DNA of 64,000 nucleotides from Pedococcus badiiscoriae (lineage in GTDB: Bacteria > Actinomycetota > Actinomycetes > Actinomycetales > Dermatophilaceae): the NCBI RefSeq assembly GCF_013408925.1, contig NZ_JACCAB010000001.1, positions 2,170,001 through 2,234,000 of the forward strand. The letters are read 5' to 3'. The notes under the pieces are model-generated. The model was not told the origin of the DNA. It saw nothing but the letters and a program-made list of their open reading frames with translations, and made no database searches. Positions within the stretch are counted from its first letter, which is position 1. Each line of letters begins with the position of its first letter. Shown in pieces: positions 2,841 through 13,098 of this stretch. Position numbers and translations under genes: made by a program.

Positions 2841-3326
2841 GTGTCTCCCGACCCTGAGGGCCAGCCGGGCGACGGGTATGCCGCGGAGCCGGCTTCGCGG
2901 CATACCGCACCTCCCGCTCCAGAGGATGTGGACTGGGAAGCCTTGCGCGCCAAGGCGATCGACATCATGGGCAAGGCCTACGCCCCCTACTCGAACTTCC
3001 CGGTGGGCGTTGCGGGCATCGTCGACGACGGTCGCGTCGTCGCCGGGTGCAACGTGGAGAACGCGGCCTACGGCGTCGGGCTGTGCGCCGAGTGCGGCAT
3101 GGTCTCGGAGCTGCACGCGACCGGCGGCGGACGGCTCGTCGCCGTCTCCTGCGTCGGGGGCGACGGGCAACCACTCATGCCCTGTGGCCGCTGTCGCCAG
3201 CTGCTCTGGGAGAACGGCGGACCTGACTGCCTGCTGCTGACTCCCGAGGGCGTGCTGCCGATGCGCGAGGTGCTGCCCCAGGCCTTCGGCCCGGACAACC
3301 TGACCGCGGCCGCACACCCGGCCTGA
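2841..3326 (+). CDS. cdd: Cytidine deaminase
   Basis: Zn-dependent deaminase converting (deoxy)cytidine to (deoxy)uridine. The 161-residue protein has the small-tetramer layout: NVENAAYG then CAE (Cys82 ligand, Glu84 proton shuttle) and PCGRC (Cys115 and Cys118 ligands). The GTG start abuts the permease stop and has GAGGGG six bases upstream. Residues 1-31 are a low-complexity extension absent from typical family members. It is encoded largely by a near-palindromic repeat at 2875-2906, so the repeat appears to have been absorbed into the reading frame. GTG2928 would remove it but has a purine-rich stretch only two bases away, so 2841 is preferred. Confidence 0.94.
   Translation: MSPDPEGQPGDGYAAEPASRHTAPPAPEDVDWEALRAKAIDIMGKAYAPYSNFPVGVAGIVDDGRVVAGCNVENAAYGVGLCAECGMVSELHATGGGRLVAVSCVGGDGQPLMPCGRCRQLLWENGGPDCLLLTPEGVLPMREVLPQAFGPDNLTAAAHPA
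2875..2906. repeat. REP-like near-palindrome inside cdd
   Basis: Two 16-base arms read GGTATGCCGCGGAGCC and GGCTTCGCGGCATACC; they are reverse complements except for one base and directly adjacent. Each outer end is the heptamer GTATGCC/GGCATAC that is frequent in this window. In frame it encodes AAEPASRHT. A half-copy with the same core lies at about 36144-36163 within the accE coding region. Confidence 0.75.
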
Positions 3327-3379: not shown

Positions 3380-4669
3380 ATGAGTGAAGCCTTCGACGCC
3401 GTCGACGTGATCATCACCAAGCGGGGCAACAGCGAGCTGTCCGACGGGCAGATCGACTGGGTCATCGACGCCTACACGCGCGGGGCCGTCGCCGACGAGC
3501 AGATGTCCAGCCTGGCGATGGCGATCCTGCTCAACGGGATGAACCGGCGCGAGATCGCCCGCTGGACGTCGGCCATGATCAACAGCGGTGAGCGGATGGA
3601 CTTCTCGTCCCTGTCGCGCCCGACGGCCGACAAGCACTCGACCGGCGGGGTCGGCGACAAGATCACGCTTCCGCTGGCGCCGCTCGTGGCCGCGTGTGGG
3701 GTGGCCGTCCCGCAGCTCTCGGGCCGCGGACTCGGCCACACCGGTGGCACCCTCGACAAGCTCGAGTCGATCCCCGGCTGGCGGGCGGCGATGAGCAACG
3801 AGCAGATGATGAGGCAGCTCGAAGAGGTCGGCGCCGTCATCTGTGCCGCCGGCGACGGTCTCGCACCGGCCGACAAGAAGCTCTACGCCCTGCGTGACGT
3901 CACGGGCACCGTCGAAGCCATCCCGCTCATCGCCTCCTCGATCATGAGCAAGAAGATCGCCGAGGGCACCGGCGCGCTGGTGCTCGACGTGAAGGTCGGC
4001 AGCGGCGCCTTCATGAAGACCGTCGACGACGCCCGCGAGCTCGCGCGCACCATGGTCGACCTCGGCACCGATGCGGGCGTCACGACGGTCGCGATGCTGA
4101 CCAACATGCAGGTTCCCCTCGGGCTCACCGCGGGCAACGCGCTCGAGGTGCGCGAGTCCGTAGAGGTGCTCGCGGGTGGCGGGCCCGAGGACGTCGTCGA
4201 GCTGACGCTGGCCCTGGCTCGCGAGATGCTCGCCGCTGCAGGTCGCGAGGAGGTCGACCCGGCCGACGCGCTCAAGGACGGCCGGGCCATGGACGCGTGG
4301 AAGGCGATGATCCGGGCCCAGGGCGGAGACCCCGACGCCGAGCTGCCCGTCGCCAAGGAGACCCACGAGGTGCTGGTGCCCGCGGACGGCGTGCTGACCG
4401 AGCTCGACGCCCTCAAGATCGGCGTGGCTGCCTGGCGTCTCGGCGCCGGCCGGGCGCGCAAGGAGGACCCGGTCCAGGCCGGCGCCGGTGTGGTCATGCA
4501 CGCCAAGCCGGGTGCCACCGTCCGGGGTGGCGAGCGCCTGCTGACCCTGCACACCGACACCCCCGAGCGCTTCGAGCGGGCCCTGGAGTCGCTCGAGGGC
4601 GCCTTCACCATCGCCCCCGAGGGGTCGCGCCCCGACCTGCTGCCGCTCGTCATCGAGAAGATCTCCTGA
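3380..4669 (+). CDS. deoA: Thymidine phosphorylase
   Basis: Reversible phosphorolysis of thymidine (and in related enzymes uridine or deoxyuridine) to base plus (deoxy)ribose-1-phosphate. The 429 residues match the family length. The phosphate-binding DKHSTGGVGDK lies at 84-94 and the signature containing SGRGLGHTGGTLDKLESIPG at 114-133. The C-terminal domain is present. A 53-base gap separates it from cdd, so it may have its own promoter as well as readthrough. No strong ribosome binding site is visible, and ATG3380 follows a GACACGAT-like stretch. Confidence 0.95.
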   Translation: MSEAFDAVDVIITKRGNSELSDGQIDWVIDAYTRGAVADEQMSSLAMAILLNGMNRREIARWTSAMINSGERMDFSSLSRPTADKHSTGGVGDKITLPLAPLVAACGVAVPQLSGRGLGHTGGTLDKLESIPGWRAAMSNEQMMRQLEEVGAVICAAGDGLAPADKKLYALRDVTGTVEAIPLIASSIMSKKIAEGTGALVLDVKVGSGAFMKTVDDARELARTMVDLGTDAGVTTVAMLTNMQVPLGLTAGNALEVRESVEVLAGGGPEDVVELTLALAREMLAAAGREEVDPADALKDGRAMDAWKAMIRAQGGDPDAELPVAKETHEVLVPADGVLTELDALKIGVAAWRLGAGRARKEDPVQAGAGVVMHAKPGATVRGGERLLTLHTDTPERFERALESLEGAFTIAPEGSRPDLLPLVIEKIS

Positions 4670-6371: not shown

Positions 6372-6983
6372 TCAGCGTGCGAGGGCGGAGAGCAGGGGCT
6401 CGAGGTCCTTGGCGCGGGCCGAGACCGCTCCCAGGGACTCCTGGCGCGCGACGACGCGGGGTTCGTCGCGCATCAGCGCCAGGCCGCGGCGGACCAGCGT
6501 CCACGGCGGCTTGCGGTGCTCGGACAGGTCGCGCAGCAGCCGCCAGACGAACGTGACCCCGCGGTGGTGGTGCACGCAGTAGGCGCCGGCGAGCAGCCCG
6601 CGCTCGCGCAGGTCAGGGATGATCTCGGCCGCGAAGATGCCCTCCGCGAGGATCAGGTCGTCCGGCGAGGCACGGACGGTCGTGGTGTCGACTGCCCTGC
6701 TGTGCGCGATGTCGTACACCGGGGTCTCGACCTCGCCCGTCGCGACCAAGGCTTGGATGGCGTCGACGGCGGCCGAGCGGTTCCAGGAGTCGGGGTGGTC
6801 CCAGTCGACGATGCCCAGCTCCTCGCTGCGCGGCATGGCCGGGTCGTCCTCATCGCGGTAGAAGTCGTCCAGCCGCACGATCGGCCAGCCGTGGGCACCC
6901 TGGAGGCGTGCGGCGAGCCGTGACTTGCCGGCGCCGCTGGGACCCGCGAGGACCACCACGCGGGCCCGGGTCGCCGGAGTCAA
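6372..6983 (-). CDS. Uridine kinase-like P-loop phosphotransferase
   Basis: About 203 residues with Walker A GPSGAGKS near the N-terminus, the substrate-side motif LDDFYRDEDDP and a conserved EGIFAAEII block, as in uridine/phosphoribulokinase-type kinases. Nucleoside phosphorylation would fit the locus, but the substrate is unproven. The start is uncertain: TTG6983 overlaps the stop of the upstream aldehyde dehydrogenase (TTGA), and GTG6959 is an alternative. It is the last gene of the leftward unit that begins at deoC. Confidence 0.8.
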   Translation of the reverse strand: MTPATRARVVVLAGPSGAGKSRLAARLQGAHGWPIVRLDDFYRDEDDPAMPRSEELGIVDWDHPDSWNRSAAVDAIQALVATGEVETPVYDIAHSRAVDTTTVRASPDDLILAEGIFAAEIIPDLRERGLLAGAYCVHHHRGVTFVWRLLRDLSEHRKPPWTLVRRGLALMRDEPRVVARQESLGAVSARAKDLEPLLSALAR

Positions 6984-7915
6984 CGGCCCTTGGGGTGCCA
7001 GACCGTCTTGGTCTCGAGGAAAGCCGTGACGCGTGCGAGGTCCGGGGTGCGCGACCAGTCGGGCTCGACCGCGTCGGAACCCTCGCCCGCAGGCCGCAGG
7101 ACCCGCTTGAGGTTCTCGGCTGCCGCCAGCTCGAGGTCGCCCCAGCTGACCCCCTCGGCGTCCGCGGCACCGGTGAGGTCGATCGCGTTGACGTCGCGGT
7201 GGGACGCCAGCCACGGTGCGACCTCGGCGGTCCGTCCGGTGATGAGGTTGATGACCCCGCCGGGGACGTCGGAGGTGGCCAGCGCCTCGGACAGGGTGAC
7301 CGCCGGCAGTGGACGCCGCTCGCTGGTCAGGACGACCGCGGTGTTGCCGGAGCAGACCACCGGGGCGAGCACCGAGACGAGGCCGAGCAGCGAGCTGCCC
7401 TGCGGCGCAAGGACGGCCACGACGCCGGTCGGCTCGGGGGCGGAGATGTCGAAGTAGGGTCCTGCGACGGGGTTGAGCCCGCCGAGGATCTGCGCGAGCT
7501 TGTCGGTCCACCCGGCATACCAGACCCAGCGGTCGATGGCCTCGGACACGATGGTCTCGGCGCGACGCTCGGTGACACCCTCGCTGGCCCGCACCTCTGC
7601 CACGAACTGGTCGCGGCGGCCCTCCATCACCTCGGCGACGCGATAGAGCACCTGCCCCCGGTTGTATGCCGTGGCGCCGGCCCAGCCGCCGAACGCACCC
7701 CGGGCGGCGACGACCGCGTCACGGGCGTCCTTGCGCGAACCCTGCGCGGCGTTCGCGAGGAACCGACCCCGGCTGTCGACGACCTCGTAGGAGCGGCCCG
7801 ACTCGGAGCGGGGGAACTTGCCGCCGATGTAGAGCTTGTAGGTCTTCCTCACGTCGACGCGTGCGCTGTCTGTCGACCGCGTGGTGCCTGTCGACCGCGT
7901 GGCGGTGGGGCTCAC
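6980..7915 (-). CDS. Short aldehyde dehydrogenase-family protein lacking the catalytic half (ALDH16 C-terminal-domain-like)
   Basis: A 311-residue protein that aligns with the N-terminal NAD-binding part of aldehyde dehydrogenases (YIGGKF start, GVVAVLAPQ, GNTAVVLTSE, a GGVINLITG block). It ends before the catalytic Cys region and terminates with TVWHPKG. The GTG overlaps the stop of the full-length enzyme (GTGA), so the two are made together. In ALDH16 proteins a complete ALDH domain is followed by a truncated, cysteine-less one; here the halves are separate genes. It is probably a structural partner rather than an enzyme. The first 20 residues hold a Ser/Thr-rich repeat (STGTTRST) from a short DNA duplication. 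Confidence 0.88.
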   Translation of the reverse strand: MSPTATRSTGTTRSTDSARVDVRKTYKLYIGGKFPRSESGRSYEVVDSRGRFLANAAQGSRKDARDAVVAARGAFGGWAGATAYNRGQVLYRVAEVMEGRRDQFVAEVRASEGVTERRAETIVSEAIDRWVWYAGWTDKLAQILGGLNPVAGPYFDISAPEPTGVVAVLAPQGSSLLGLVSVLAPVVCSGNTAVVLTSERRPLPAVTLSEALATSDVPGGVINLITGRTAEVAPWLASHRDVNAIDLTGAADAEGVSWGDLELAAAENLKRVLRPAGEGSDAVEPDWSRTPDLARVTAFLETKTVWHPKGR

Positions 7916-9360
7916 TTGCTGTCTCCCGTCGTGACGTAGGCGGCGAGGCCGTGGCGGCCACCCTCCCGGCCGTAGCCCGACTCCTTGTAGCCACCGAAGG
8001 GGCTGGTCGGGTCGAACTTGTTGAACGTGTTGGCCCAGACGACGCCGGCCCGCAGCTGGTCGGCCATCCAGAGGATGCGCGAGCCCTTCTCGGTCCAGAT
8101 CCCCGCGGACAGTCCGTAGGGCGTGTTGTTGGCCTTGGCCACCGCCTCGTGCGGCGTGCGGAAGGTCAGCACCGACAGGACCGGCCCGAAGATCTCCTCC
8201 TGGGCGATCCGGTGGCCCTGGCTGACGCCGGTGAAGACCGTCGGCCGGAACCAGAAGCCCTTGCTGGGCAGCTCGCAGCCGTTGTCCCAGCGCTCGGCGC
8301 CCTCGGCCTCACCGGCGGCGGTGAGCTCGACGATCCGGTCGAGCTGAGCCTTGGAGTTGATCGCGCCGACATCGGTGTTCTTGTCGAGCGGGTCGCCCAC
8401 CCGCAGCGTCTGCAGGCGGCGCTTGAGGCGCTTCTCGACCTCGTCCGCGATGCTCTCCTGCACGAGCAGGCGGGACCCTGCGCAGCAGACGTGGCCCTGG
8501 TTGAAGAAGATCCCGTTGACGATGCCCTCGACCGCCTGGTCGAGCGGGGCGTCGTCGAAGACGATGTTGGCCGCCTTGCCGCCGAGCTCGAGCGTGGCCT
8601 TCTTGCGCGTGCCCGCGATGGACCGGGCGATCATCTTGCCGACGCCCGTCGAGCCGGTGAACGCCAGCTTGTCGATGTCGGGGTGGTCGACGATGGCCTG
8701 ACCGGTCGCGCCCGCACCCGTGATGATGTTGACGACACCCGGGGGCAGGTCGGCCTGCTGGACCACCTCGGCGAACAGCAGCGCCGTCAGCGGGGTGGTC
8801 TCGGCCGGCTTGAGCACGACCGTGTTGCCGGTGGCCAGCGCGGGAGCGATCTTCCACGCCAGCATGAGGATCGGGAAGTTCCACGGGATGACCTGGCCCA
8901 CGACACCATGCGGGCGGGGGTTGGTGCCCAGCCCGGCGTAGTCCAGCTTGTCGGCCCACCCTGCGTGGTAGAAGAAGTGCGCCGCGGCCAGCGGCACGTC
9001 GACGTCGCGGCTCTCCTTGATCGGCTTGCCGTTGTCGAGGCTCTCCAGCACCGCGAACTCGCGCGCGCGTTCCTGCAGGATGCGGGCGATGCGGAAGAGG
9101 TACTTGCCACGGTCGGCACCGGACATCCGGCCCCACGCACCGTTGTAGGCGCGCCGCGCCGCGGCCACCGCACGGTCGACGTCGGCGTCGCTGGCCGACG
9201 TGATCTCCGCGAGGACCTCCTCGCTGGACGGGTTGATCGACTTGAAGGCCGATCCGCCCTGGGAGTCGGTGAACTCGCCGTTGATGAACAACCCGTAGGA
9301 GGGCTTGATGTCGACGACCGCGCGCGACTCCGGCGCCGGTGCGTACTCGAACGTGGCCAT
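7912..9360 (-). CDS. NAD-dependent aldehyde dehydrogenase (ALDH16 N-terminal-domain-like)
   Basis: A complete 482-residue aldehyde dehydrogenase. It shows PWNFP, the FTGSTGVGK cofactor loop, LELGGKAA with the general-base Glu, FNQGHVCCAGSR with the nucleophile Cys292, and EEIFGPVLSV. It lies between deoC and the short ALDH-like gene. The likely substrate is therefore acetaldehyde released by DeoC, oxidised to acetate, but this is inferred from context. Start ATG9360 has no strong ribosome binding site; an 18-bp tandem repeat separates it from the deoC stop. Confidence 0.93.
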   Translation of the reverse strand: MATFEYAPAPESRAVVDIKPSYGLFINGEFTDSQGGSAFKSINPSSEEVLAEITSASDADVDRAVAAARRAYNGAWGRMSGADRGKYLFRIARILQERAREFAVLESLDNGKPIKESRDVDVPLAAAHFFYHAGWADKLDYAGLGTNPRPHGVVGQVIPWNFPILMLAWKIAPALATGNTVVLKPAETTPLTALLFAEVVQQADLPPGVVNIITGAGATGQAIVDHPDIDKLAFTGSTGVGKMIARSIAGTRKKATLELGGKAANIVFDDAPLDQAVEGIVNGIFFNQGHVCCAGSRLLVQESIADEVEKRLKRRLQTLRVGDPLDKNTDVGAINSKAQLDRIVELTAAGEAEGAERWDNGCELPSKGFWFRPTVFTGVSQGHRIAQEEIFGPVLSVLTFRTPHEAVAKANNTPYGLSAGIWTEKGSRILWMADQLRAGVVWANTFNKFDPTSPFGGYKESGYGREGGRHGLAAYVTTGDSK

Positions 9361-9395
9361 GGCTTCAGGTTCCTCGGGATCCGTCGGGGGCAGGG

Positions 9396-9467
9396 AGCTG
9401 CTGGGGAGCAGCGAGCTGCTGGGGAGCAGGCAGCTGCTGGGGAGCAGGGAGCTGCTGGGGGGCTCGC
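9396..9467. repeat. 18-bp tandem repeat (about four units) between deoC and aldehyde dehydrogenase
   Basis: Units start at 9396, 9414, 9432 and 9450; the first three share AGCTGCTGGGGAGCAG and the fourth decays after GCTGCTGGGG. Each unit contains CTGCT-N4-AGCAG, able to fold into a small hairpin in the leftward transcript. It fills the gap between the deoC stop and the next start. It might act as attenuator or mRNA spacer, and its copy number could vary between strains. Confidence 0.85.
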
Positions 9468-9470
9468 ATG

Positions 9471-10487
9471 TCAGTACAGGCTGGGCGAGTCGTCGGTGAC
9501 GTAGTCCGCGCCGGAGTAGGCGCCGATCGCCATCCGCTGGCGTTGCAGGATGAGGTCGTTGAGCAGGCTCGAAGCGCCGAACCGGAACCAGTGCGGGTCC
9601 AGCCAGTCCCCGCCGGCGACCTCGCTCACCGTGACCAGGAACTTGAGCGCGTCCTTGCTGGTGCGGATGCCACCGGCAGGCTTGACGCCGACCATCTCGC
9701 CGGTGAGGTCACGCCAGTCGCGCACCGCCTCGAGCATGACCAGGGTGACGGGCAGGGTGGCGGCGGGGGAGACCTTGCCGGTGGAGGTCTTGATGAAGTC
9801 GCCCCCGGCCAGCATGGACAGCCAGGAGGCTCGTCTGACGTTGTCGTAGGTGACCAGCTCGCCGGTCTCCATGATCACCTTGAGCCTGGCCCGTGAGCCG
9901 TCCTTGCGGACGCACGCCTCCGCGACCTCGGCGATCTGGCGGAACACCGTGAGGTAGTCCCCGGACAGGAACGCGCCACGGTCGATCACCATGTCGATCT
10001 CGTCGGCTCCGGCGGCCACGGCGTCGCGGGTGTCGGCCAGCTTGACCGGCAGGAGGGCGCGGCCGCTGGGGAACGCCGTCGCGACCGCGGCGACGTTGAC
10101 GCCGCTCTGGCCGAGGGCCTCCTTGGCGGTGGCGACCATGTCCCCGTACACGCAGACGGCCGCGGGCCGGGGGGTGTCGGGGTAGCCCGGGTCGGGGTTG
10201 AGCGCCTTGGCGCACAGGCCGCGGACCTTGCCCGCGGTGTCAGCACCCTCGAGGGTCGTCAGGTCGATCATCGAGATCGCCAGGTCGATGCCCCAGGCCT
10301 TCGAGGTCGTCTTGATGGACCGGGTGCCCAGGGCCGCGGCCCGCGCCTCGCAGCCCACCTGGTCGACCCCGGGCAGGCCGTGCAGCCAGCTCGTGACGGC
10401 CGCGTTGGTGAGGCGGGAGACGCCGAGGAGGTCGCGCGCCCGGGTCGTCGCGTCGACGGAGGGGGGCGCAGCTGTGGGGGTGCTCAC
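9471..10487 (-). CDS. deoC: Deoxyribose-phosphate aldolase
   Basis: Class I aldolase splitting 2-deoxyribose-5-phosphate into glyceraldehyde-3-phosphate and acetaldehyde. The 338-residue form is of the longer type. Motifs are the DEIDMVID block, KVIMETGEL, FIKTSTGK with the Schiff-base Lys, and VGVKPAGGIR with the second Lys. GTG10487 is chosen because TAGGAT lies six bases upstream. It is first in a leftward unit with the two aldehyde dehydrogenase genes and the kinase, a logical order for disposing of acetaldehyde. Confidence 0.95.
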   Translation of the reverse strand: MSTPTAAPPSVDATTRARDLLGVSRLTNAAVTSWLHGLPGVDQVGCEARAAALGTRSIKTTSKAWGIDLAISMIDLTTLEGADTAGKVRGLCAKALNPDPGYPDTPRPAAVCVYGDMVATAKEALGQSGVNVAAVATAFPSGRALLPVKLADTRDAVAAGADEIDMVIDRGAFLSGDYLTVFRQIAEVAEACVRKDGSRARLKVIMETGELVTYDNVRRASWLSMLAGGDFIKTSTGKVSPAATLPVTLVMLEAVRDWRDLTGEMVGVKPAGGIRTSKDALKFLVTVSEVAGGDWLDPHWFRFGASSLLNDLILQRQRMAIGAYSGADYVTDDSPSLY

Positions 10488-10507: not shown

Positions 10508-12220
10508 TCAGATGGCGGTCAGCAGGCCCATCGCCGCCTTGAGCTCTGCCAGCCGGGTGCTGGCCGTGGCGCGGGACTCCCGCAGTGCGTCGGCGCCGGC
10601 CACCGGTTCGACCACCTCGAGGTAGACCTTGAGCTTGGGCTCGGTGCCCGAGGGTCGCACGATGATCCGCGAGTCGTCCTCGAGGTAGTAGCGCAGCCCG
10701 TCGGTCGGCGGGAGGGCCTCACTGCCGACGGCGAGGTCGTCCACCCGCGAGACCGCGATCCCCGCCACCTCCTGCGGCGGGTCGTCGCGGAGCCGGGCCA
10801 TCACGGTGCCGATCAGCGACAGGTCTGCGACCCGCACCGCCAGCGCGTCGGTGGCGTGGACCCCGTGCTCCACCGCCAGGTCGTCGAGCAGGTCGGTCAG
10901 CGAGCGCCCCTGCGACTTGAGGGTCGCCGTCATCTCGGCCACCACGAGCGCGGCACTGACGCCGTCCTTGTCCCGCACGTGGCGCGGGTCGACGCAGTAG
11001 CCGAGCGCCTCCTCGTAGCCGTAGCGCAGTCCCTCGACGCGCGAGATCCACTTGAACCCGGTCAGCGTCTCCTCGTGCCGCACCCCGGCGGTCCTGGCCA
11101 TCGCCGCGAGCAGTCGGGACGACACGATCGAGTTGGCGAAGACCGCATCGCCGTCCACCCCGCCGGCCAGGATGTGCGCCCCCAGCAGGACCCCGACCTC
11201 GTCGCCGCGCAGCATCCGCCAGCCGCCGGGACCGGGTACCGCGACGGCGCACCGGTCGGCATCGGGGTCGTTGGCGATGACGACGTCCGGTCCGGTCTGC
11301 TCGGCGAGCTCGAGCGCGGCGTCCATCGCGCCGGGCTCCTCCGGGTTCGGGAAGTGCACCGTCGGGAACATCGGGTCGGGCTCGGCCTGGCTGGCGACGG
11401 GGATCGGCGCGGCATACCCGGCCCGCACGAACGCCTTGGCCACCGTCTCGGACCCCACCCCGTGCAGCGCGGTGTGGACGACCGTGACGTCGCGCGGGGT
11501 GTCCGCGGCCACGACCGTGACGACGTCCTCGAGGTAGGCGGCGAGCACGTCGTCCCCGAGGGTCTCCCAGCCGTCCGTCGCCAGTGGGACGTCCGCGACC
11601 GCAGTGACGCGCGCGATCTGGGCGGCGATCCCGCTGTCGGACGGCGGCACGATCTGCGAGCCGTCGCCGAGGTAGACCTTGTAGCCGTTGTCCTCGGGCG
11701 GGTTGTGGCTGGCGGTCACCATCACGCCGGCGTCCGCGCCGAGGAACCGGATCGCGTAGGCCAGCACCGGGGTCGGCAGCGGCTTGGGGAGGATCGCTGC
11801 GCGACCCCCGGCCCCCACCACGACGGCCGCGGTGTCGCGCGCGAACACGTCGGAGTTCTTGCGCGCGTCGTAGCCCACCACGACGAACGGTTCCGGCGTG
11901 AGCGTCTTGACGTATGCCGTGAGGCCGGCTGCCGCCCGGATGACGACCGAGCGGTTCATCCGGTTGGGACCGGCGCCGAGGGCCCCGCGCAGCCCGGCCG
12001 TGCCGAACTCGAGCATCCCCGCGAACCGGTCCGCGAGGTCTTCGACCGCCCGCTTCTTGCCCTTCTTCGCCCTCGCGAGGACTTCGCCCAGCTCGACGCG
12101 GGTCTCGTGGTCGGGGTCGTCGTCGACCCAGGCCTGGGCGGCGTCGATCAGCTCCTGGACCTGGGCCTCGTCGGAGGACGGCGAGTCAGCTCCGCGGCCG
12201 TGCCGCGCGGCGTACGTCAT
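10508..12220 (-). CDS. Phospho-sugar mutase of the alpha-D-phosphohexomutase family (PGM2/PmmB-like)
   Basis: A 570-residue, four-domain mutase. It has the phosphoserine loop VTASHNP (Ser171), the Mg-binding DPDADR, the sugar-binding GFKWI and EEALGY, and the phosphate-binding RPSGTEPK near the C-terminus. Length and motifs place it with the PGM2/PmmB branch. Human PGM2 acts as a phosphopentomutase, and no DeoB is seen here, so it could interconvert (deoxy)ribose-1- and -5-phosphate between the phosphorylases and DeoC. A phosphogluco- or phosphomannomutase role is the alternative. ATG12220 is preceded by GAGAGGACGTCC, a plausible binding site. Confidence 0.92.
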   Translation of the reverse strand: MTYAARHGRGADSPSSDEAQVQELIDAAQAWVDDDPDHETRVELGEVLARAKKGKKRAVEDLADRFAGMLEFGTAGLRGALGAGPNRMNRSVVIRAAAGLTAYVKTLTPEPFVVVGYDARKNSDVFARDTAAVVVGAGGRAAILPKPLPTPVLAYAIRFLGADAGVMVTASHNPPEDNGYKVYLGDGSQIVPPSDSGIAAQIARVTAVADVPLATDGWETLGDDVLAAYLEDVVTVVAADTPRDVTVVHTALHGVGSETVAKAFVRAGYAAPIPVASQAEPDPMFPTVHFPNPEEPGAMDAALELAEQTGPDVVIANDPDADRCAVAVPGPGGWRMLRGDEVGVLLGAHILAGGVDGDAVFANSIVSSRLLAAMARTAGVRHEETLTGFKWISRVEGLRYGYEEALGYCVDPRHVRDKDGVSAALVVAEMTATLKSQGRSLTDLLDDLAVEHGVHATDALAVRVADLSLIGTVMARLRDDPPQEVAGIAVSRVDDLAVGSEALPPTDGLRYYLEDDSRIIVRPSGTEPKLKVYLEVVEPVAGADALRESRATASTRLAELKAAMGLLTAI

Positions 12221-12246
12221 GGTGGACGTCCTCTCGGGATGGGCTC

Positions 12247-13098
12247 TCAGATGGTGGCGACGACGGCTGCGAGCAGCGTGCCGCACCGCTCGGCGGCGGC
12301 CTGACCGGCCTCGAGCACCTCGGCGTGCGACAGCGGCTGGTCGCTGATCCCGGCGGCCAGGTTGGTCACCAGGGAGATGCCCAGGACCTCCATGCCCGCC
12401 TGGCGCGCCGCGATGGCCTCGAGGGTGGTCGACATGCCCACGAGATCGCCGCCGATGACCTTGGCCATCTGCACCTCGGCCGGGGTCTCGTAGTGCGGCC
12501 CGGTGAACTGGACGTAGACGCCCTCGTCGAGGTCGGCGTCGACCTGACGGGCCAGGTCGCGCAGCCGCGGGGAGTAGAGGTCGGTCAGGTCCACGAAGTT
12601 CGGGCCCTCGATCGGCGAGTGCGCCGTGAGGTTGATGTGGTCGCGGATGAGCACGGGCGTGCCGGGGCCCCACGCCCGGTTGAGCCCGCCGCACCCGTTG
12701 GTCAGCACGATCGTCGAGCAGCCTGCCGCGGCGGCGGTCCGGACGGCGTGGACGACGGCGCGGACGCCCTTGCCCTCGTAGAAGTGGGTGCGGGTGCCGA
12801 AGACCAGGGCGCGCCGACCCGTGTCACCGATGGCCACCGAGCGCATCGTGCCGGAGTGGCCGGCGACGGCGGCCTTGGCGAAGCCGGGGACCTCGGCGTT
12901 GTCGATGGACGCGAGCGTCTCGCCGATGCGGTCGCCGGTCTGGCCCCAGCCGGAACCGAGGACGAGCGCCACGTCGTGTCGGTCGGTGCCGCTGCGTTCG
13001 GCGATCACTGCGGCCGCCGCGCGGGCCACCTCGAACGGGTCGGTAGCCGGGTCGGCCAGGTCGGGGATGCCCTCGGACGGGCTGTTCTGCTCGCTCAC
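12247..13098 (-). CDS. punA: Purine nucleoside phosphorylase (trimeric type)
   Basis: Phosphorolysis of (deoxy)inosine and (deoxy)guanosine to base and (deoxy)ribose-1-phosphate. The 283-residue protein shows GSGWG phosphate binding, HSGT, RTHFYEGK, TNGCGG, the GPHYETPAE motif and the late VTNLAAGI segment typical of low-molecular-mass trimeric enzymes. It lies 26 bases upstream of the mutase and is probably co-transcribed with it. GTG13098 is supported by TAGTCT six bases upstream. Confidence 0.94.
   Translation of the reverse strand: MSEQNSPSEGIPDLADPATDPFEVARAAAAVIAERSGTDRHDVALVLGSGWGQTGDRIGETLASIDNAEVPGFAKAAVAGHSGTMRSVAIGDTGRRALVFGTRTHFYEGKGVRAVVHAVRTAAAAGCSTIVLTNGCGGLNRAWGPGTPVLIRDHINLTAHSPIEGPNFVDLTDLYSPRLRDLARQVDADLDEGVYVQFTGPHYETPAEVQMAKVIGGDLVGMSTTLEAIAARQAGMEVLGISLVTNLAAGISDQPLSHAEVLEAGQAAAERCGTLLAAVVATI

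What the first reader, a model, noticed from the sequence alone, without database searches (positions are those of the whole stretch)
6980..9360. Split ALDH16: a complete aldehyde dehydrogenase coupled to a cysteine-less half enzyme
Seen: a full ALDH (Cys292 nucleophile) whose stop overlaps (GTGA) the start of a 311-residue ALDH-like protein that ends before the catalytic region. Known: ALDH16 family proteins carry one complete and one truncated, catalytically dead ALDH domain in a single chain. Inference: this is a two-gene version in which the dead domain is a trans-acting structural subunit, placed after deoC to oxidise acetaldehyde. The short protein is too well kept to be a pseudogene.
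Basis: partly seen in the sequence, partly recalled or inferred. Interest (0 to 1): 0.72.

Follow-up and report, generated by a model that had tools for sequence, protein, structure and literature searches.

The report
Two-gene ALDH16 beside deoC
Many actinobacteria seem to make one aldehyde dehydrogenase as two separate proteins, a working enzyme that has lost its docking arm and a dead half-enzyme that has kept that arm; the pair sits after the gene that releases acetaldehyde from deoxyribose, and offers a clean way to ask what the dead half is for.

Summary
The full ALDH (7912-9360, minus) and the 311-aa protein (6980-7915, minus) each have Loktanella ALDH16 as best sequence match in the PDB: residues 10-475 and the C-terminal domain 491-766. 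The short protein is not a plain N-terminal half. It is an ALDH without catalytic domain that keeps the oligomerization flap, including the C-terminal strand (ETKTVWHP); the full enzyme keeps the catalytic domain but has lost the flap hairpin and that strand. Such complementary losses predict an obligate heterocomplex. In the window's phylum 84 of 396 genomes hold the short gene; deoC-ALDH-short order is kept in the loci fetched wherever the contig reaches, with one exception. In 99 family genomes the two genes co-occur except at three contig ends. Natural fusions arose repeatedly inside the split lineage, and fused proteobacterial ALDH16 follows deoC in 10 of 10 loci looked at. The complex and acetaldehyde oxidation are inferred, not shown; covariation within split pairs was at chance.

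The parts
6980..7915 (-). short subunit: catalytic-domain-less ALDH16 C-terminal-domain homologue, 311 aa
7912..9360 (-). catalytic subunit: ALDH16-type ALDH, 482 aa, lacking the oligomerization flap
7912..7915 (-). GTGA start/stop overlap of the two genes
8485..8487 (-). codon of catalytic Cys292
8887..8946 (-). residues 139-158 of the ALDH, where the flap hairpin of classical ALDHs is shortened (20 residues between DK and PWN; 28, 28, 28 and 32 in four PDB ALDHs)
7430..7480 (-). flap hairpin kept in the short subunit (residues 146-162; model strands 146-149 and 154-162)
6992..7018 (-). C-terminal oligomerization strand kept in the short subunit (residues 300-308, LETKTVWHP)
9471..10487 (-). 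deoC, deoxyribose-phosphate aldolase (source of acetaldehyde), directly upstream of the pair
   Evidence: TIGR00126 over cut-off; for conservation
10508..12244 (-). phosphohexomutase-family gene of the same gene string, below the cut-off of every NCBIfam model matched (a phosphopentomutase-like role is a guess)
12247..13098 (-). purine-nucleoside phosphorylase
   Evidence: TIGR01698 over cut-off
3380..4669 (+). thymidine phosphorylase (deoA) of the divergent nucleoside gene string
   Evidence: NF004490 over cut-off

Best explanation
This is a two-gene ALDH16. The long protein carries NAD site and catalytic domain and oxidises the aldehyde; it has lost the 'arm' (oligomerization flap: internal hairpin plus C-terminal strand) that an ordinary ALDH lends to its dimer partner. 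The short protein is a duplicated ALDH that lost its catalytic domain and its PWN and Cys motifs (and in most members the TGS part of the NAD motif) but kept the Rossmann-like core and the whole arm. The two are expected to form a heterodimer shaped like one classical ALDH dimer, in which the dead subunit lends its arm to the live subunit's catalytic domain, and two such heterodimers a tetramer-like alpha2-beta2 particle, as fused ALDH16 does with two chains. Its likely job is to turn the acetaldehyde released by DeoC during deoxynucleoside breakdown into acetate. Shown here: sequence and fold relationship, complementary losses, synteny, co-occurrence, purifying selection, repeated natural fusion. 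Inferred: the physical complex, its need for activity, the substrate.
For: Best PDB match of both proteins is Loktanella ALDH16, each to its own half. Short-subunit model (pLDDT 90.9) matches the ALDH16 C-domain at 1.3 A over 269 residues and spans classical ALDHs from near their start to their C-terminal strand while skipping about 200 residues. In 157 split pairs (156 distinct): SHORT C-terminal strand motif in 156, the other one differing by one residue; a strand motif in the ALDH tail in 0 (median tail 5 residues); Cys motif in SHORT in 0. DK-PWN spacing is 20 in 140 of 149 measured ALDHs, 21-24 in seven and 29 in two with a Gly/Ser-rich loop, 8 not measured. Co-occurrence in the family: both 60, neither 36, ALDH only 3 (121, 254 and 214 bases from a contig end), SHORT only 0, of 99. 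Synteny: ALDH upstream on the same strand in 79 of 80 loci and deoC in 74 of 80, the misses at contig ends; named set 80 of 80 and 78 of 80. In-order fusions scattered in the split tree. The fused actinobacterial model has the ALDH16 domain arrangement. Proteobacterial fused ALDH16 follows deoC in 10 of 10 loci looked at.
Against: No complex was seen or predicted between two chains. AlphaFold2 has very likely seen 6mvr, so the fused model is not independent evidence. Mean-field covariation between the subunits shows flap-to-catalytic-domain enrichment only when proteobacterial fusions are included (10 of the top 50 against 2.3 expected); in split pairs alone it is at chance (2 against 1.8; 149 pairs, effective number 82), and likewise in split plus actinobacterial fused (3 against 1.8). 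The substrate rests on gene order alone. One named locus with room upstream has no deoC there.
Confidence: 0.8

Rival explanations
1. The short protein is a separate regulator or scaffold (for example it binds DeoC or a nucleotide with its Rossmann-like core) and the ALDH works as an ordinary homo-oligomer.
For: Gene order deoC-ALDH-short would fit a DeoC link too; the short Rossmann-like core is well kept; 10 of 157 SHORT sequences still show a TGS motif; split-only covariation does not show the docking interface.
Against: The ALDH lacks both parts of the flap that ordinary homo-oligomers use, while the short protein keeps exactly that flap, with the core TVWHP of its last strand invariant or nearly so in 46 diverse rows; fused forms place it on the catalytic domain.
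Confidence: 0.12
2. The short gene is a decaying leftover of a tandem ALDH duplication.
For: It lacks the catalytic domain and the active-site motifs.
Against: dN/dS 0.08-0.31, as deoC; present across the phylum sample; the same domain is kept in fused proteins.
Confidence: 0.02
3. Same heterocomplex, but the aldehyde is another one (for example a sugar aldehyde or a xenobiotic) and deoC adjacency reflects general carbon salvage.
For: No substrate was tested; Agrobacterium, Pacificitalea and Pseudochrobactrum loci also hold rbsK and aldose epimerase genes.
Against: deoC is the constant neighbour in both phyla, fused or split, within a deoxynucleoside gene string in the window.
Confidence: 0.2

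Closest known systems
Loktanella sp. ALDH16 (LsALDH16, PDB 6mvr/6mvs/6mvt/6mvu; Liu and Tanner 2019, paper not held; known from passages of the review PMC8160307 and from recall)
   Same: Both domains by sequence and fold; catalytic CCAG motif; dead Rossmann-like C-terminal domain with flap; same domain arrangement in the predicted actinobacterial fusion; deoC next to fused ALDH16 in ten related proteobacterial loci (Loktanella's own locus was not looked at).
   Different: One polypeptide there, two genes here; the actinobacterial short protein has a slightly longer hairpin segment and RSESGR / NPVAGPYF signatures.
Classical ALDH dimers and tetramers (ALDH1/ALDH2)
   Same: Catalytic subunit fold and active-site motifs; the expected heterodimer copies the classical homodimer.
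   Different: Classical subunits each own the flap; here it is only on the dead subunit.
Human ALDH16A1
   Same: Named ALDH16; described as a pseudoenzyme lacking the catalytic triad (PMC10650815, passages read).
   Different: No catalytic Cys in human; the actinobacterial catalytic subunit keeps it. Not aligned here.

Membership tests
ALDH16 family | Catalytic-type ALDH domain most similar to the ALDH16 N-terminal domain | tested here: met
   505 bits in that domain, next PDB entry 440
ALDH16 family | Second ALDH-like domain with Rossmann-like fold and flap but no catalytic domain | tested here: met
   143.6 bits; 1.3 A over 269 residues to 6mvr 497-765
ALDH16 family | Both domains in one polypeptide | tested here: not met
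   separate genes in the window and in the genome loci fetched with both genes readable (two script flags were in-frame stops); fusions exist in other records
ALDH16 family | C-terminal domain packs on the catalytic domain as the partner of a classical ALDH dimer does | tested here: inconclusive
   Only for a natural fusion by AlphaFold2; not for the two window chains; covariation inconclusive
ALDH16 family | Dimer that mimics the classical tetramer | not testable with these tools
   Feature from PMC8160307 (passages)
Active NAD-dependent ALDH | Catalytic Cys, Glu (ELGGK) and PWN motifs in the long subunit | tested here: met
   Present in the window protein; Cys motif and ELGGK each in 153 of 157, PWN in 149 of 157, some sequences being cut by contig ends

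The most novel reading that the evidence does not exclude
The two-gene form is the ancestral ALDH16: a tandem duplication of an ALDH gene beside deoC was followed by complementary loss (arm from one copy, catalytic domain from the other), which locked the two products into an obligate heterocomplex; later gene fusions, repeated in Actinomycetota and once towards the proteobacterial clade, made the one-chain ALDH16 known from the crystal structure and, by extension, the animal protein.
Probability: 0.3. Interest if true: 0.72.

Novelty: new variant of a known kind. Interest (0 to 1): 0.56.

Why it matters
The role of the dead domain of ALDH16 is not settled, and in humans the whole protein is described as a pseudoenzyme. 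In the one-chain form the domain cannot be left out cleanly. Here nature supplies it as a separate gene, so the live subunit can be made with and without it. The pair also links bacterial ALDH16 to a pathway (DeoC acetaldehyde in deoxynucleoside catabolism) in two phyla, and would be an example of an enzyme whose dimerization arm is owned only by a pseudoenzyme partner.

Tried and rejected
Ordinary N-terminal ALDH fragment: rejected. Pseudogene: rejected. Viral relatives: eight pattern matches, none a relative. Fusions: P0241, the top fused-length hit, is a frameshift product (its ALDH part goes out of frame). Of the 120 listed proteins (358 passed) 68 hold ALDH then SHORT in order by script; 55 with an intact G[RM]EGG motif were taken and 29 remained after thinning. 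Some of these may still be sequencing errors; the fused-only starred clades are P0266/P0290/P0302/P0308, P0309/P0319/P0320/P0329, P0254 and five more, P0243/P0245, and P0246/P0249, the last with linkers that could be read-through of the usual overlap. Two loci flagged 'fused' by script (L039, L046) have an in-frame stop between the genes.

Covariation between subunits. The single top pair (ALDH 242 with SHORT 269) is only K/R against mostly V/L/I and my tree test grouped K with R, so it tested nothing; I give the pair no weight. The flap-region enrichment vanished in the split-only set and in the actinobacterial set.

Structure ranking: VIA-align puts some ordinary ALDHs level with ALDH16 for the short model, so the family call rests on sequence, tree and Foldseek order.

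Other phyla: the genome search could not be centred outside the window's phylum, so fused ALDH16 elsewhere was sampled only from the protein search (the named ones among the 120 listed are Rhodobacterales or unspecified Proteobacteria) and from plasmid records. Eukaryotic ALDH16A1 was not aligned. NCBIfam: none of the 25 best models shown for either protein is passed. Promoter/terminator scan: no promoter-like site and two terminator-like sites against one expected, both inside the ALDH gene. Literature; I saw listings (capped) and passages, not all papers that matched. No listed title or abstract start joins ALDH16 with deoC, Streptomyces or a two-gene form; the one paper each is unrelated by title. 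The library misses most subscription papers, including the LsALDH16 paper.

Full report
WHAT IS THERE. The window holds, on the minus strand, purine-nucleoside phosphorylase (12247-13098), a phosphohexomutase-family gene (10508-12244), deoC (9471-10487), a 482-aa ALDH (7912-9360), a 311-aa ALDH-like protein (6980-7915) and a kinase-like gene with sub-threshold similarity to uridine kinase. Divergent to them, on the plus strand, lie cytidine deaminase, thymidine phosphorylase, a small gene without an NCBIfam match and adenosine deaminase. This reads as a deoxynucleoside breakdown locus. The ALDH stop and the short start share GTGA.

WHICH FAMILY. In a sequence search of the PDB the short protein's best hit is Loktanella ALDH16, in its C-terminal domain 491-766 (143.6 bits for that stretch, against 44.0 for the same entry's N-terminal domain; the best ordinary ALDH reaches about 100 bits). 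The full ALDH's best hit is the same entry, residues 10-475 (505 bits in that domain; next entry 440 bits). None of the 25 best NCBIfam models shown for either protein is passed.

DISTRIBUTION AND SYNTENY. Of 396 genomes drawn evenly from the window's phylum (Actinomycetota, judged from the named relatives), 84 hold the short gene at E <= 1e-40, one copy each. I fetched surroundings for 80 of these 84, window included; the four left out lie close to contig ends. ALDH lies upstream on the same strand in 79 of 80 and deoC in 74 of 80; the misses are at contig ends. deoC is within 400 bases of the ALDH in 64, farther in 10. In four loci 0.5-2.1 kb separate ALDH and SHORT, yet both are kept. In 80 named loci (Pedococcus, Knoellia, Streptomyces, Nocardioides, Amycolatopsis, Blastococcus and others; the best 80 of 592, a list that was itself cut) the counts are 80 of 80 and 78 of 80, none fused; of the two without deoC one is at a contig start and one is not. 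The two sets share at least one genome. In 99 genomes of the window's family 60 have SHORT and 63 the ALDH16-type ALDH (E <= 1e-130). All 60 SHORT genomes have the ALDH next to it on the same strand (at most 190 bases between matches), and the three ALDH-only genomes have it 121, 254 and 214 bases from a contig end; I did not look for a SHORT remnant there. Obligate partnership is the simple reading. SHORT is under purifying selection (dN/dS 0.08-0.31; ALDH 0.05-0.30; deoC 0.09-0.27, six relatives).

EVOLUTION. A tree of 123 rows (quick method, SH-aLRT only) has the proteobacterial C-domains as one clade (99) and the actinobacterial SHORT domains as the rest (83). The 29 actinobacterial fused rows are scattered among 66 split rows: 14 changes between split and fused in all, at least 7 for the fused-actinobacterial label forced by starred branches. 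The early actinobacterial branches are split, with weak support (81-83), so fusion is most simply derived there, several times; for the family as a whole the ancestral state is open. SHORT, C-domains and ALDH16 catalytic domains lie together against five other ALDHs of the genome (95), as expected from a duplication within the lineage, but long branches meet there and the program warns of it.

FUNCTION. Fused ALDH16 on ten proteobacterial plasmid or chromid records (Agrobacterium, Marivivens, Nitratireductor, Pacificitalea, Caballeronia, Sinorhizobium, Pseudochrobactrum, Phyllobacterium, Paracoccus, Shinella; ten that I picked from 155 records with a match) lies directly downstream of deoC in all ten, annotated in eight and found by tblastn in ten. 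DeoC yields acetaldehyde and glyceraldehyde 3-phosphate (PMC6365646, passages read). The most likely reaction is acetaldehyde to acetate. Loktanella ALDH16 is an active enzyme (recalled from Liu and Tanner 2019); human ALDH16A1 is described as inactive (PMC10650815 and PMC8160307, passages read).

WHAT WAS AGAINST. Mean-field covariation across 314 pairs (149 split, 55 actinobacterial fused, 110 Loktanella-type) put 10 of the top 50 inter-subunit pairs between flap and catalytic domain (2.3 expected), but with split pairs only it was 2 against 1.8, and with split plus actinobacterial fused 3 against 1.8. The signal therefore comes from the difference between phyla and does not prove contact in trans.

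NOVELTY. It works like ALDH16 and belongs to that lineage by both domains, but fails the one-polypeptide feature: a new, two-gene variant. Nothing in the listings of ten paper searches describes it (calls under Tried and rejected); the library is partial and the listings are capped.

Noticed in passing
window 9386-9460: 18-bp tandem repeat (4.2 copies, 91% matches) fills most of the gap between deoC and the ALDH start, in the leader of the ALDH gene. Conservation in relatives not checked.
   Followed up: partly
window 2875-2906: 16-nt inverted repeat with no spacer inside the first codons of the cytidine deaminase reading frame; may be a small inserted palindrome.
   Followed up: no
window 6375-7001: Kinase-like gene after the short subunit matches uridine kinase models only far below their cut-offs; it directly follows SHORT in the same-genus relative L034 and lies apart or is not seen in others.
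   Followed up: no
L056, L060, L062, L064: In four loci 0.5-2.1 kb lies between ALDH and SHORT; in L056 one frame there reads to me like a PIN-domain protein and in L064 like a phosphoesterase (by eye, no family search).
   Followed up: partly
P0254-P0274 (proteins): Many fused actinobacterial proteins carry linkers of roughly 65-110 residues rich in Ala, Asp and Glu; P0324, also a fusion, is named Nakamurella sp..
   Followed up: partly
P0241: An apparent metagenome fusion is a frameshift product that joins ALDH and SHORT out of frame; others with an early-ending ALDH match are probably alike. A trap for automatic fusion counts.
   Followed up: partly
G000:C1:1848175-1848300: Short ALDH-like match with a stop inside in the window's genome.
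   Followed up: no
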